NCBI RefSeq assembly: GCF_039655775.1
Contig: NZ_JBBYXJ010000002.1
Location: forward strand, 124,001-188,000
Reading direction: 5' to 3'
Length of the DNA stretch: 64,000 bases
DNA from: Iodidimonas sp. SYSU 1G8
GTDB taxonomy: Bacteria > Pseudomonadota > Alphaproteobacteria > SMXS01
In this document: positions 28,088-31,089 of the stretch, piece by piece
Layout: each line of letters starts with the position of its first letter
Numbering within the stretch: the first letter of the stretch is position 1
Notes under the pieces: generated by a model
What the model was told of the DNA's origin: nothing
Databases searched by the model: none
The model's input: the letters and a program-made list of their open reading frames with translations, nothing else
Translations under genes and position numbers: made by a program

Positions 28088-28873
28088 ATGAAGCACCTCG
28101 AAGGATCTGTCGCCATCGTCACCGGCGCCGGCCGCGGCATAGGCAAGGCCATCGCCATCGCCTATGCGCGCGAAGGCGCCAAGGTGGCGGTCGCCTCGCG
28201 CACCAAGTCGACGGTGGACGGCGTGGTCGAGCAGATCCGGGCCGAGGGCGGCGAGGCGCTCCCCGTGGTGGTCGACGTGTCCGAACGCGCCCAGGTGTTC
28301 CGCATGGTCGAGGAGACCGTGAAGGCCTATGGCACCGTCGACATCCTGGTGAACAACGCCCAGGGCTTCGGCACCAAGGAAAAGCCGCAGGGATCGACCG
28401 TGTTCGTCGGCGTCGAGGATTCCACGGACGAGGAAGTCCGCTACACCTTCGACAGCGGCGCCATGGCGACGCTGTGGGGCATGCAGGCCGTGTTCCCGAT
28501 CATGAAGGACAAGAAGTGGGGCAAGATCATCAACTTCTCGTCCACCTCGGGCATTCTCGGCACCACCGGCAACACCGCCTACAACATGGCCAAGGAGGCA
28601 ATCCGCGCCGTGTCGCGCACCGCCGCCAATGAATGGGGCCAGTTCGGCATCAACGTGAACATCATCAGCCCGACGCTGGCCTCGGACGCCTTCGAGAACT
28701 GGCGCGCGGCCCGCCCCGAGTTCGTCACCGCCCTCGAGCAGGCGCTGCCCATGCGCTATCTGGGCGACCCGCTGGTGCATGGCGCGCCGCTGTGCGTGTT
28801 CCTCGCCGGCCATGGCTCCGACTACATCACCGGCCAGACCTTCATGCTCAATGGCGGCAAATTGATGCCGTGA
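28088..28873 (+). CDS. SDR-family NAD(P)-dependent oxidoreductase
   Basis: Classical short-chain dehydrogenase, 261 residues. Cofactor motif TGAGRGIG (12-19), VNNAQG near 89-93, Ser about 152 in NFSSTSGILG, and the catalytic Tyr165-x3-Lys169 in TAYNMAKEAI are all present, so the enzyme should be active. The insert around residues 94-117 is longer than in many SDRs. The last third of the gene and its terminator are duplicated at 30152-30415, so the active 3' end may itself have been replaced by recombination. Substrate unknown; the neighbouring CoA-transferase suggests a 3-hydroxyacyl-CoA or alcohol intermediate. Confidence 0.94.
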   Translation: MKHLEGSVAIVTGAGRGIGKAIAIAYAREGAKVAVASRTKSTVDGVVEQIRAEGGEALPVVVDVSERAQVFRMVEETVKAYGTVDILVNNAQGFGTKEKPQGSTVFVGVEDSTDEEVRYTFDSGAMATLWGMQAVFPIMKDKKWGKIINFSSTSGILGTTGNTAYNMAKEAIRAVSRTAANEWGQFGINVNIISPTLASDAFENWRAARPEFVTALEQALPMRYLGDPLVHGAPLCVFLAGHGSDYITGQTFMLNGGKLMP

Positions 28874-28932
28874 CGCCCACAAGTTTCCTGGGGAGAGATG
28901 GCGGGGCGTCCTTCGGGGCGCCCTTAGCTTTT
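28669..28932 (+). repeat. 264-bp direct repeat, copy 1 (3' end of the SDR gene plus terminator)
   Basis: Aligns without gaps to 30152-30415 with 13 mismatches by my count (about 95% identity). Eight mismatches lie in coding sequence, of which six are synonymous; the other five cluster at or just after the stop codon. The terminator part from about 28882 on is identical. The repeat brackets the Fic/HTH gene pair. Confidence 0.95.
28904..28932 (+). terminator. Rho-independent terminator of the SDR gene
   Basis: Eight-bp GC-rich stem (28904-28911 with 28916-28923, one G-T pair) closed by a TTCG tetraloop and followed by TTAGCTTTT. Located 31 bp past the SDR stop. An identical copy exists at 30387-30415. 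Confidence 0.88.
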
Positions 28933-28961
28933 ATGCCCCTCTCTCCCCTGCTTCTCAGGGC

Positions 28962-29552
28962 TCATGAACGCGCGAAGGCAACGAGGGCGGTGAAATCGTG
29001 ATTATCGGCCGCACGCAGAGCGACCACGTAAGCCTTACGGGTTTCATTCGGATCAATGAGATTGGCGCTTCCCCAAGAAAAACGCGGACGACCAAGCTGC
29101 TGGGCCAACAAGTCCCCCACCAGGCGAGAGAACCGCCCGTTGCCATTCGGAAATGGGTGAATGGCGACCAGCAGATGTGAAAAGCGGATTGCGATTTCGT
29201 CGGGCGGGAAGGTTGCGTGTTCAACCCAATAACGCGCATCGTCGATGGCTTGTGCGATATCCGTGCCGATACGGTACGCCTCGACACCGATATTGCGCGC
29301 CGTCTTACGATAGCCACCCGCCCAGCGCCAGACGTCGCCGAACATCCTCTTGTGCAATTGCCTCAGGAATTTCTCGTCCAGTACGTTGCGTCTGCGCGAT
29401 GACAGCCATTTTACCGCGCCGGCGATGTTCACCTGCTCGGCTTCGTTCAACTCGCGGCGCAGCGTGATGTAGGCAGGAATAAGCCCTTCACGCTCATCAG
29501 GTTCGAGCGGTGTATTGGCCTCGTCATCTTCATCGAATAGGGGATCGCTCAT
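28962..29552 (-). CDS. Mobile mystery protein B, Fic/DOC-family (toxin-like)
   Basis: 196-residue Fic-domain protein. The active-site motif is intact: HPFPNGNGR at 132-140 (family HxFx[D/N]GNGR), consistent with AMP or other nucleotidyl transfer from NTP to a target hydroxyl. The N-terminal helix region (residues 24-60) and RRNVLDEKFLRQLHKRMFGD match the 'mobile mystery protein B' group, always paired with protein A. ATG 29552 overlaps the stop of the upstream gene by 4 bp (ATGA); a GTG four codons upstream is possible. The antitoxin or regulator role of the partner is inferred. GC content is visibly lower than in flanking genes. Confidence 0.88.
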   Translation of the reverse strand: MSDPLFDEDDEANTPLEPDEREGLIPAYITLRRELNEAEQVNIAGAVKWLSSRRRNVLDEKFLRQLHKRMFGDVWRWAGGYRKTARNIGVEAYRIGTDIAQAIDDARYWVEHATFPPDEIAIRFSHLLVAIHPFPNGNGRFSRLVGDLLAQQLGRPRFSWGSANLIDPNETRKAYVVALRAADNHDFTALVAFARS

Positions 29553-30013
29553 GCATCGTCCCACAGCCGCCGAGGTGGTCCATCGAGAATTTCGCGCATA
29601 AGCCGAGCCCGCTCATCGGCCAAGTCGCGCGAGGTCAGTTCCTGATTTTCAAGGCTCATGGTGTGGTGCAAGCGCGCCAGTTCGCTAAGGGCTTTCTTCT
29701 CCGCCTGATCGAGCACCGTCTGATCAAGCGAGGCGCGCGGGACAATCGCATAGACCAGCACGCAATCCATTGCCTCGGCGGCTTCTCGCAGGGTCTTGAT
29801 CGTGGTTGATCCGGTGATCTCGGCTTTTTCGAGGGCGTTGATGCGCGGGCGCGTGACGCCAATGCGTTTGCCTAGCGTGGCAGGGGACATGCCCAAGGCC
29901 TCGCGAATGGCGCGCACCCACCCGAACGGAGGCATCCGAAGCGCTTCGCGATCAACCGCGTTCAAGCGACGGTCCAGATTCTTGCGGGCTAGTCGTGCCT
30001 GGTCAGACTTCAT
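29549..30013 (-). CDS. Mobile mystery protein A, HTH-domain regulator/antitoxin-like
   Basis: 154 residues. An XRE-like helix-turn-helix occupies about 34-65 (IREALGMSPATLGKRIGVTR, then INALEKAE). The following ITGSTTIKTLREAAEAMDCV is the usual continuation of the family, and LVYAIVPRASLDQTVLDQAE forms the C-terminal half. It precedes the Fic gene with a 4-bp overlap, the fixed order of this pair in plasmids and genomic islands. ATG 30013 gives the expected length of about 150; TTG 30064 would add 17 residues. Probably autoregulates the operon through direct repeats upstream. Confidence 0.88.
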   Translation of the reverse strand: MKSDQARLARKNLDRRLNAVDREALRMPPFGWVRAIREALGMSPATLGKRIGVTRPRINALEKAEITGSTTIKTLREAAEAMDCVLVYAIVPRASLDQTVLDQAEKKALSELARLHHTMSLENQELTSRDLADERARLMREILDGPPRRLWDDA

Positions 30014-30071
30014 GTCCTCATCCCACCAACGATCTGTCACAGATAGATTTCTTATCGTGGACAATAAAGTA

Positions 30072-30117
30072 ATATATATGTGCCTTATATTTCAATAATT
30101 AGATATATATATGTGCC
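30072..30117 (-). promoter_or_regulatory. Direct-repeat candidate operator/promoter region of the mobile mystery operon
   Basis: The 13-bp sequence ATATATATGTGCC occurs at 30072-30084 and again at 30105-30117 (33-bp period, about three helical turns). Read on the minus strand, a TTGAAA box (30095-30090) lies between them, so bound HTH protein could cover the promoter. The A/T-rich tract contrasts sharply with the GC-rich surroundings. Confidence 0.4.
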
Positions 30118-30152
30118 GATTCTCATGATCGATATCTGGCCAATACGTCGCC

Positions 30153-30356
30153 CCGACCCTGGCCTCGGACGCCTACGAGAACTGGCGCGCGGCCCGTCCC
30201 GAATTCGTCACCGCCCTCGGGCAGGCGCTGCCCATGCGCTATCTGGGCGACCCGCTGGTGCATGGCGCGCCGCTGTGCGTGTTCCTCGCCGGCCACGGCT
30301 CCGACTACATCACCGGCCAGACCTTCATGCTCAATGGCGGCAAGCTGATGCCGTAA
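30153..30356 (+). pseudogene. Truncated SDR 3' remnant (last 67 codons)
   Basis: In-frame relic of an SDR gene, encoding PTLASDAYENWRAARPEF to the terminal LNGGKLMP and a TAA stop. It differs from the intact SDR at only two amino acids (Phe to Tyr, Glu to Gly), while most DNA differences are synonymous. That pattern indicates the two ends diverged while both were functional genes, for example in different strains, and were brought together later. No start codon or upstream coding sequence remains. Confidence 0.85.
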
Positions 30357-30386
30357 CGGCCAAGAATTTCCTGGGGAGAGATGGCG

Positions 30387-30415
30387 GGGCGTCCTTCGGG
30401 GCGCCCTTAGCTTTT
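30387..30415 (+). terminator. Duplicate Rho-independent terminator
   Basis: Identical to 28904-28932: 8-bp stem, TTCG loop, TTAGCTTTT tail. It now insulates the Fic/HTH operon promoter from downstream sequence, or is simply a passenger of the duplicated gene end. Confidence 0.82.
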
Positions 30416-30498: not shown

Positions 30499-31089
30499 TC
30501 AATTTAGTAGGGTATCACTGGAATCGTGATTCGGCGAACTGCATAATTCAGTTAAAATATCACCAGCATCCAAATCGACTTCAACGTCAGAATGTTCTCG
30601 GCATCGTATGCTTTGCGTACAGCCATCTGCGACATGTATTTTGGCCATCACTCCACCAGAAATTACTATATTCACTGGCATTGGAGGACAGTGATCGACA
30701 CTTTGCGACGAACCAGAAGTCACACGTACCCCAGTTCCTTTTTTTAGGGAGATATACAAATTGTCGACATTCTTATCGCTACAACTATAGGTCTGTGTAT
30801 CAATCTTTGCACATTCCACAATATCAATGTCATTTATTCCCGGTGAGTTTTGCATTTTGAAGTTGAGACAGCCAGCGCCACCATAGGACGATGAGCAACC
30901 CTCGGTCTGATACCAATACGTTAAATCAACATCTCCGTTCAGGATTACCTGAATGTATTCTGAATTTACATGATTACGCGGAATCTTTCCAATGAATAAA
31001 CTTTCTCCGGCCATAAGTTCCGCCTGAAATAGGAAATTTAGCCCCACCACAAAAACAATAAATAATTTTGAACCGATACTTCTAGTCAT
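30499..31089 (-). CDS. Cys-rich secreted protein of unknown function, AT-rich orphan
   Basis: 196 residues. The N-terminus MTRSIGSKLFIVFVVGLNFL is a hydrophobic signal peptide, with possible cleavage after LMA near residue 27. The mature part has eight cysteines (in TEGCSSSYGGAGC, VECAK, TYSCSDK, DHCPPM, DGCTQS, IRCREH, TELCSS), an even number that suits disulfides in the periplasm or outside the cell, and many short strands with Ser/Thr/Asn/Asp. Base composition is near 40% GC against the GC-rich genome, so it was probably acquired recently. I do not recognise a family. Confidence 0.65.
   Translation of the reverse strand: MTRSIGSKLFIVFVVGLNFLFQAELMAGESLFIGKIPRNHVNSEYIQVILNGDVDLTYWYQTEGCSSSYGGAGCLNFKMQNSPGINDIDIVECAKIDTQTYSCSDKNVDNLYISLKKGTGVRVTSGSSQSVDHCPPMPVNIVISGGVMAKIHVADGCTQSIRCREHSDVEVDLDAGDILTELCSSPNHDSSDTLLN

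What the first reader, a model, noticed from the sequence alone, without database searches (positions are those of the whole stretch)
28669..30415. Fic/HTH 'mobile mystery' pair captured between two copies of a gene end and its terminator
Seen: a 264-bp gap-free direct repeat (13 mismatches, about 95%) of the SDR 3' end with its Rho-independent terminator brackets exactly the two-gene module (28962-30013). Six of eight coding mismatches are synonymous, so the copies diverged as functional genes, probably in different strains, before being joined. Known: mobile mystery A/B genes travel together on plasmids and islands, but how they move is not described to my knowledge. Inferred: the module enters by homologous or site-favoured recombination at a conserved gene end, regenerates the gene, and leaves the displaced end as a scar; recombination between repeats could excise a 1483-bp circle.
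Basis: partly seen in the sequence, partly recalled or inferred. Interest (0 to 1): 0.8.

Follow-up and report, generated by a model that had tools for sequence, protein, structure and literature searches.

The report
Toxin pair between duplicated gene ends
A two-gene unit that looks like a bacterial toxin and its antidote sits between two slightly different copies of the end of an ordinary enzyme gene, and a few related pairs at other genes show the same trace, suggesting how such units may spread without a cutting-and-pasting enzyme of their own.

Summary
A gap-free 264-nt direct repeat (95%) of an SDR gene's 3' end plus terminator brackets 1219 bp holding only 'mobile mystery' genes A (Xre-type HTH) and B (Fic) with A's AT-rich upstream region. 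Six of six congeners have one SDR end and no module there. Among 89 other A/B loci, 8 are bracketed by repeats of >=80 bits (0 of 600 control placements), but only 3 are clean on inspection; 78 of 89 have nothing above 34 bits. Clean cases have unrelated targets: hemB 3' end, a phage-portal gene 5' end, an intergenic site; later also hsdR 5' end. Best reading: a recombinase-free addiction-type unit imported together with a piece of its target gene from another lineage, anchored by that homology. A preference for gene 3' ends and an att site are not supported; the circle is untestable here. Nearest known: insertion with long target duplication (restriction-modification genes) and homology-facilitated illegitimate recombination.

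The parts
28088..28873 (+). SDR-family oxidoreductase gene, intact; its 3' part is repeat copy 1
   Evidence: adh_short_C2 PF13561 E=5e-45; orthologues about 88-90% in 6 congeners
28669..28932 (+). repeat copy 1: last 205 nt of the SDR gene plus its terminator
   Evidence: terminator-like hairpin and T run read directly
28933..30151 (.). inserted unit, 1219 bp, no match at the locus in 6 of 6 congeners
28962..29543 (-). mobile mystery protein B, Fic fold, motif HPFPNGNGR
   Evidence: TIGR02613 258.4 bits; PF02661; Foldseek FICD E=5e-5, VbhT E=9e-4 on a model of mean pLDDT 76
29549..30013 (-). mobile mystery protein A, Xre-type HTH, likely antitoxin and repressor, motif TMSLENQ
   Evidence: TIGR02612 168.1 bits; HTH_3; VIA-align of residues about 27-95: HigA2 Z 8.5 (rmsd 2.1, 64 aligned), HigA3 8.5, HipB 7.8-8.1; Foldseek none at E<=0.001
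30014..30151 (.). AT-rich (36% GC) upstream region of A with repeated ATATATATGTGCC-like sites (putative operators); outer edge of the unit
30152..30415 (+). repeat copy 2: SDR gene end without its 5' part, plus terminator; cut edge faces A
   Evidence: two of its four private coding changes are non-synonymous
30499..31089 (-). AT-rich orphan ORF (41% GC) between copy 2 and the DUF2252 gene; perhaps a separate insertion
   Evidence: no family; GC

Best explanation
The A/B pair is a compact (about 1.2 kb) addiction-type unit, a Fic toxin with an Xre-type antitoxin/repressor, that carries no recombinase. It entered this genome by recombination anchored in homology: incoming DNA held the unit linked to a piece of the SDR gene from another lineage, that piece paired with the resident SDR gene, and integration was additive rather than replacing. 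The result is a complete SDR gene next to B and a left-over SDR end, cut on the A side, downstream. The direct repeats could afterwards serve as portable homology arms for onward transfer into strains with an empty site, and as substrate for rare deletion, which addiction would select against. Shown: the anatomy, the single gene end in relatives, the recurrence at unrelated targets, and divergence of the copies in a mostly synonymous way. Inferred: the homologous route, the order of events, the roles of toxin and antitoxin, and the arm function.
For: Repeat and unit; single SDR end and no module at the locus in 6 of 6 congeners. Same architecture at unrelated targets, with 1149-1258 bp between the copies in five of six cases (window, L096, L045, L212, L048; L140 is 1778) and the A-side edge 74-138 bp upstream of A in all six (coordinates). 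Empty site for L096: 8 of 8 relatives fetched have one hemB end and no A/B match in the stretch fetched, and in G441 and G424 the hemB end runs directly into the flank that follows the L096 fragment. Copies differ mostly synonymously: 33 syn / 7 non over window, L096, L140, L212 against 0.45 expected, p=1e-6. In L209 and L212 what looks like the same A-side junction carries hsdR fragments that differ 10 syn / 5 non, p=0.002, so the fragments themselves look like functional alleles. Stacked displaced ends: hemB in L096 (outer piece 77-79%, inner piece 97%) and hsdR in L209. No recombinase in the unit. Doc control, of slightly different geometry: 0 of 30 loci above 29.2 bits.
Against: 108 of 113 A/B loci have no adjacent repeat of 34 bits or more and 78 of 89 none in the wider test. 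The window alone is borderline for the allele argument (p=0.055). L113, left out of the pool, shows 17 syn / 19 non. Later allelic replacement of the intact SDR copy would also give mostly synonymous differences. No donor locus with the unit and the matching allele was found. Neither copy in the window is clearly closer to the congeners (12-21 against 17-20 differences in 205 nt). A nearly fixed A-side edge fits a defined mobile unit better than a random join. At L113 a different gene is flanked by such pieces, so the trace is not special to A/B.
Confidence: 0.5

Rival explanations
1. Insertion with long target duplication: the unit inserted once and duplicated the resident target, as described for restriction-modification genes. 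The copies then diverged, with the intact one also exchanging alleles with other strains.
For: Long and variable direct repeats (21-264 nt), empty sites, no recombinase. Literature describes RM units inserting with target duplications of the order of 100 bp (PMC3874152 passages; PMC3031569 passages; PMC1643837 passages).
Against: The strongly synonymous differences and the synonymous fragment-to-fragment differences in L209/L212 are not expected if fragments merely decay; allele exchange has to be added.
Confidence: 0.27
2. One-step homology-facilitated illegitimate recombination, a specific form of the best explanation: linear donor DNA anchored in the SDR gene, with an illegitimate join on the A side. 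The resident end is displaced downstream, as proposed for T6SS effector-immunity modules and Rhs tips.
For: One cut edge per case; the more diverged end lies outermost in L096; model described in PMC5361080 (passages).
Against: It predicts variable A-side edges, while they lie 74-138 bp from A in six of six (partly a selection effect for L048, found by the adjacency criterion). In L140 the cut edge is on the B side. Donor unknown.
Confidence: 0.25
3. Site-specific integration at a gene-end attachment site that regenerates the gene (as phage 21 or e14 in icd, recalled), with the integrase lost or acting in trans.
For: Gene restored; 3' end target in the window and in L096.
Against: No integrase in the 1219 bp; no shared core among six targets; 5'-end and intergenic targets; core not identical.
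Confidence: 0.04
4. An unrelated older tandem duplication of the SDR end into which A/B later fell.
For: The repeat is not identical (95%).
Against: 0 of 6 congeners have the duplication; unit edges lie close to repeat edges here and at other loci.
Confidence: 0.04

Closest known systems
Insertion with long target duplication of restriction-modification genes (Nobusato 2000, Furuta 2010; known to me here through passages of PMC3874152, PMC3031569, PMC1643837; the originals were not read)
   Same: Small selfish module, no recombinase, long and variable direct repeat of the target, empty site in relatives.
   Different: Here a Fic/HTH pair; the two target copies look like different functional alleles rather than a duplicated resident target.
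Homology-facilitated illegitimate recombination with displaced ends: T6SS effector-immunity arrays (PMC5361080 passages), Rhs/CDI tips (search listing and remarks in PMC5361080)
   Same: New module next to the intact gene, old end left beside it, stacking of displaced ends.
   Different: The anchor is a gene unrelated to the module's function; the unit has a nearly constant outer edge.
Class I Fic toxin-antitoxin pairs (VbhTA, FicTA; class and motif recalled, PDB names)
   Same: B has the Fic fold; A has a C-terminal M-x-L-E-x-Q motif that partly fits the recalled antitoxin motif [S/T]xxxE[G/N].
   Different: A has an Xre HTH domain; B has N where D/E is usual in the Fic motif (recalled).
Phage 21 / e14 integration in icd (recalled)
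   Same: Gene 3' end restored by element-borne sequence.
   Different: No integrase, no common core, other target types.

Membership tests
Mobile mystery A/B pair (TIGR02612/TIGR02613) | Score above NCBIfam curated cut-offs for both genes, adjacent, A upstream of B | tested here: met
   A 168.1 vs 122.6, B 258.4 vs 124.4 bits; coordinates
Insertion with long target duplication | Long direct repeat of target flanking the insert, single target in a relative without the insert | tested here: met
Insertion with long target duplication | Both repeat copies derive from the resident target | tested here: inconclusive
   33 syn / 7 non pooled argues against; allele exchange afterwards cannot be excluded
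Homology-facilitated illegitimate recombination | Homologous crossover on one side, illegitimate join on the other | tested here: inconclusive
   One cut edge seen; the donor allele is not identified
Integrase-type genomic island at a gene end | Integrase gene in the element | tested here: not met
   Only A and B recognised in 28933-30151
Integrase-type genomic island at a gene end | Common short att core among insertions | tested here: not met
   Six unrelated repeat sequences
IS or composite transposon | Transposase or flanking IS copies for the window's unit | tested here: not met
   None in the unit; flanks are SDR gene ends
Fic-domain protein | Fic domain, fold and HPFx..GNGR motif | tested here: met
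AMP-transferring Fic enzyme | Acidic residue at position 5 of the motif (recalled) | tested here: not met
   N in the window and N133 in 98% of 115 aligned B proteins
Class I Fic antitoxin | Motif [S/T]xxxE[G/N] (recalled) | tested here: inconclusive
   Window TMSLEN fits; 49 of 118 A rows fit, 100 of 118 have [ST]MxLExQ (the window is in the set twice)
Toxin-antitoxin pair | Toxicity of B neutralised by A | not testable with these tools
   needs an experiment

The most novel reading that the evidence does not exclude
The long direct repeats are portable homology arms: a class of recombinase-free selfish units that spread between strains by carrying, on both sides, copies of a piece of a conserved gene, so that ordinary RecA-type recombination inserts them into any relative with that gene without harming it, while addiction stops the repeats from deleting them.
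Probability: 0.22. Interest if true: 0.8.

Novelty: new variant of a known kind. Interest (0 to 1): 0.58.

Why it matters
How toxin-antitoxin modules move between chromosomes without a recombinase is an old open question (my own knowledge). Two-allele flanking repeats would be a datable, testable trace of such a move: they say that the unit arrived with a piece of its target gene, and they predict empty sites, donor alleles and stacked displaced gene ends that can be looked for in strain collections. They also join two literatures, long target duplication by restriction-modification genes and gene-end displacement by homology-anchored import.

Tried and rejected
Plain chance for the repeat: excluded. 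Full tandem SDR duplicate in relatives: none in 6 of 6 fetched loci (L027 has one further 41-nt match inside the SDR coding part). Inverted repeats or a common core at the unit's edges: none seen. Homology beyond the edges: 2-9 of 25 bases alike, nothing informative. Polarising the window's 13 mismatches: at three sites copy 1 goes with G005 and copy 2 with most other congeners; too few sites to name the foreign copy. Divergence along the SDR gene shows no clear break.

Hits set aside: L100 and L104 (non-coding, repeat-like; in L100 also found inverted elsewhere), L113 (the fragment also flanks an older neighbouring gene in G484 and G475), L064 (other repeats involved), L036 (partial second A copy between the repeats). 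L134 is a low-complexity array; L214 reads as a pair of short elements with inverted ends; L216 appears to be L064 again (same repeat length and identity). These were judged by eye, not by a blind rule, so the 'clean' count rests on inspection. Of 101 loci with both genes, the window apart, 11 were not scored for want of 800 bp of flank; L119 has no A match. The tests share most loci, so they are not independent.

A HipA control failed because I set the E-value too strict (2 of 289 genomes); Doc was used instead, with the 30 loci returned out of 65 matches listed. VIA-align rows cover mainly residues 27-93 of A, so its C-terminal part was barely tested. G401, about as near to the L096 genome as those fetched but split over contigs, was not fetched.
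Full report
OBSERVATION. The window (66.1% GC) holds a 264-nt gap-free direct repeat, 28669-28932 and 30152-30415, 95% identical. It covers the last 205 nt of an SDR-family gene (28088-28873, +) and the terminator behind it. [quoted passage not shown]). The genome has one A and one B match over the cut-offs.

RELATIVES OF THE WINDOW. The SDR gene is present at about 88-90% identity in all six congeners searched. In the 11-12.5 kb fetched around it in each the gene end is single and nothing matches A or B. The stretch downstream of the SDR gene is variable in the genus. The unit is therefore a lineage-specific insertion, and no relative seen carries the duplication without it.

WHAT THE GENES ARE. 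B has the Fic fold (FICD E=5e-5, VbhT E=9e-4 by Foldseek; profile matches), although the model is of middling confidence (mean pLDDT 76). Its motif is HPFPNGNGR, with N in 98% of 115 aligned relatives at the place where D or E is usual (the expectation is recalled). A has an Xre-type HTH domain like those of HigA and HipB (Foldseek matches only weak, best E=0.03) and a C-terminal M-x-L-E-x-Q signature, M, E and Q at 100% and L at 99% of 115 aligned sequences. Upstream of A most of the loci printed have an AT-rich array of short, partly palindromic sites (judged by eye). A toxin-antitoxin operon repressed by A is the obvious reading; it is inferred, not shown.

IS THE ARCHITECTURE GENERAL? I gathered 80 named loci by similarity (the best 80 of 578), 22 loci over the cut-off in 385 genomes of the class (one is the window) and 18 in 398 genomes of the phylum (two were already held). 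Comparing the 800 bp before A with the 800 bp after B, repeats of at least 80 bits occur in 8 of 89 loci with enough flank, against 0 of 600 random placements in the same loci; at 34 bits it is 11 of 89 against 6 of 600. Inspection leaves three that are locus-specific and simple: L096 (Phenylobacterium MAG, hemB 3' end, 241 nt, 96.7%), L140 (5' end of a phage-portal gene, 99 nt, 88%) and L045 (intergenic next to an exonuclease VII small-subunit gene, 54 nt, 93%); 3 of 89 against 0 of 600 is p=0.002. The phylum sample added L212 (hsdR 5' end, 90 nt, 87%). With the edges required to lie within 250 bp of the genes, 4 of 113 loci reach 60 bits against 0 of 800 placements, and 5 of 113 reach 34 bits against 2 of 800; without the low-complexity L134 the first is 3 of 112, p=0.002. 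L048 (21 nt at a gene junction) is a weaker sixth case. Of 30 Doc loci none exceeds 29.2 bits, in a test of slightly different geometry. So the pattern recurs at unrelated targets, but 108 of 113 A/B loci have no adjacent repeat of 34 bits.

THE UNIT. The distance between repeat copies is 1219 (window), 1258 (L096), 1179 (L045), 1185 (L212), 1149 (L048) and 1778 bp (L140). The edge on the A side lies 74-138 bp before the A start codon in all six, just outside the AT-rich sites; the B-side distance varies from within B's end to 610 bp (from the coordinates). The adjacency rule that found L048 biases this; L096, L045, L140 and L212 came from the wider comparisons. Targets are two gene 3' ends, two 5' ends, one intergenic site and one gene junction, so gene 3' ends are not a rule.

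EMPTY SITE FOR A SECOND CASE. In the genus of L096, 60 genomes were searched and 59 had a match. In the eight relatives whose hemB region I fetched (G394, G404, G424, G429, G436, G440, G441, G450) the hemB end is single and nothing matches A/B; in G441 and G424 only 440 and 120 bp lie beyond the gene before the contig ends. The L096 fragment together with 76 nt of downstream flank matches the hemB end and flank of G441 and G424 in one run at about 91%. The fragment is thus joined to the native downstream DNA and the intact gene stands next to B, as in the window.

ARE THE TWO COPIES ALLELES? If the resident end had been duplicated and the truncated copy then decayed while the intact one stayed under selection, about 45% of coding differences should be synonymous. 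Observed: window 7 of 9, L096 6 of 8, L140 11 of 12, L212 9 of 11; pooled 33 of 40, p=1e-6. L064 (15 of 17) points the same way and L113 (17 of 36) does not; both were left out of the pool because their repeats have another or mixed origin. In the window alone p is 0.055, and polarisation is mixed: copy 2 has two non-synonymous among four private coding changes, copy 1's private changes are synonymous, and at three sites copy 1 goes with G005 while copy 2 goes with most other congeners. In L209 and L212, whose units are 88% identical, the hsdR fragment meets the unit at what looks like the same junction, yet the fragments differ 10 syn / 5 non (p=0.002), more than the intact genes do (15 of 89 against 7 of 77). 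That is what one expects if the arms exchange alleles with functional genes. A caveat: population recombination that replaces the intact copy after a plain duplication would give a similar count, and the numbers per locus are small.

STACKING. L096 has an older hemB-end piece (77-79%) further out, beyond a gene with a weak T5orf172 match. L209 reads as what I take by eye for the tail of a B gene followed by an hsdR start fragment, then A/B, then a Schlafen/AlbA_2-type gene (PF04326) that begins with 11 nt of the hsdR start, then the hsdR start itself at the contig end. L113 has a fragment beyond a gene with antitoxin-like and HTH matches, an insertion also seen in G484 and G475 without A/B between the listed matches. 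Displaced ends thus seem to accumulate beside the intact gene, as described for T6SS immunity genes (PMC5361080, passages).

MECHANISM. I favour additive import anchored in homology: donor DNA with the unit and a piece of the target gene pairs with the resident gene and leaves an intact gene plus a displaced or duplicated end. The first joining of unit and target piece needs another event (long target duplication or an illegitimate join), which this case does not reveal. Once two arms exist, ordinary homologous recombination could move the unit into any relative with the gene. The confidences given overlap, since the one-step rival is a specific form of the best explanation.

KNOWN OR NEW. Long target duplication is known for restriction-modification modules (passages) and homology-facilitated illegitimate recombination from natural transformation and conjugation (listing and abstract starts; passages). 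I found no paper that describes how mobile mystery genes move: four papers hold the phrase, two were checked by passage, two only seen in the listing; a broader search on Fic, Xre and direct repeats (15 of 89 papers listed, plus passages of PMC2701414) showed none. The library lacks most subscription journals. I class it as a new variant of a known kind. Interest is moderate to good because a trace of recombinase-free movement with two distinguishable alleles makes the mechanism testable.

Noticed in passing
B proteins; window 28962-29543: The Fic motif is HPFPNGNGR: N replaces the usual acidic residue (recalled) in 98% of 115 aligned relatives, so B may not be a standard AMP-transferring Fic enzyme. 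It also matches PADLOC PDC-S04 candidates (best E=2.5e-20).
   Followed up: partly
A proteins; window 29549-30013: C-terminal signature M-x-L-E-x-Q, preceded by S or T in 100 of 118 rows, resembles the recalled inhibitory motif of class I Fic antitoxins.
   Followed up: partly
window 30499-31089: AT-rich (41% GC) ORF with a signal-peptide-like start (by eye) and no family match, between copy 2 and the DUF2252 gene; a DUF2252-like stretch follows the SDR gene within about 150 bp in G006.
   Followed up: no
L096:7924-9450: Two displaced hemB ends of different age with a gene weakly like T5orf172 between them: the hemB end looks like a repeated insertion site.
   Followed up: partly
L209 (reverse strand), whole locus: Apparent tail of a B gene plus hsdR fragment, then A/B, then a Schlafen/AlbA_2-type gene, then the hsdR start: a stack at an hsdR start.
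   Followed up: partly
L096:10595-10706: About 110-nt repeat right behind B that occurs dozens of times in that genome, in places in tandem.
   Followed up: no
L113:8898-9494: Gene with antitoxin-like (Phd/YefM, below its cut-off) and HTH matches flanked by gene-end pieces in G484 and G475, so such duplications are not limited to A/B pairs.
   Followed up: partly
L036:677-1009: Partial second copy of A upstream of the complete A/B pair.
   Followed up: no
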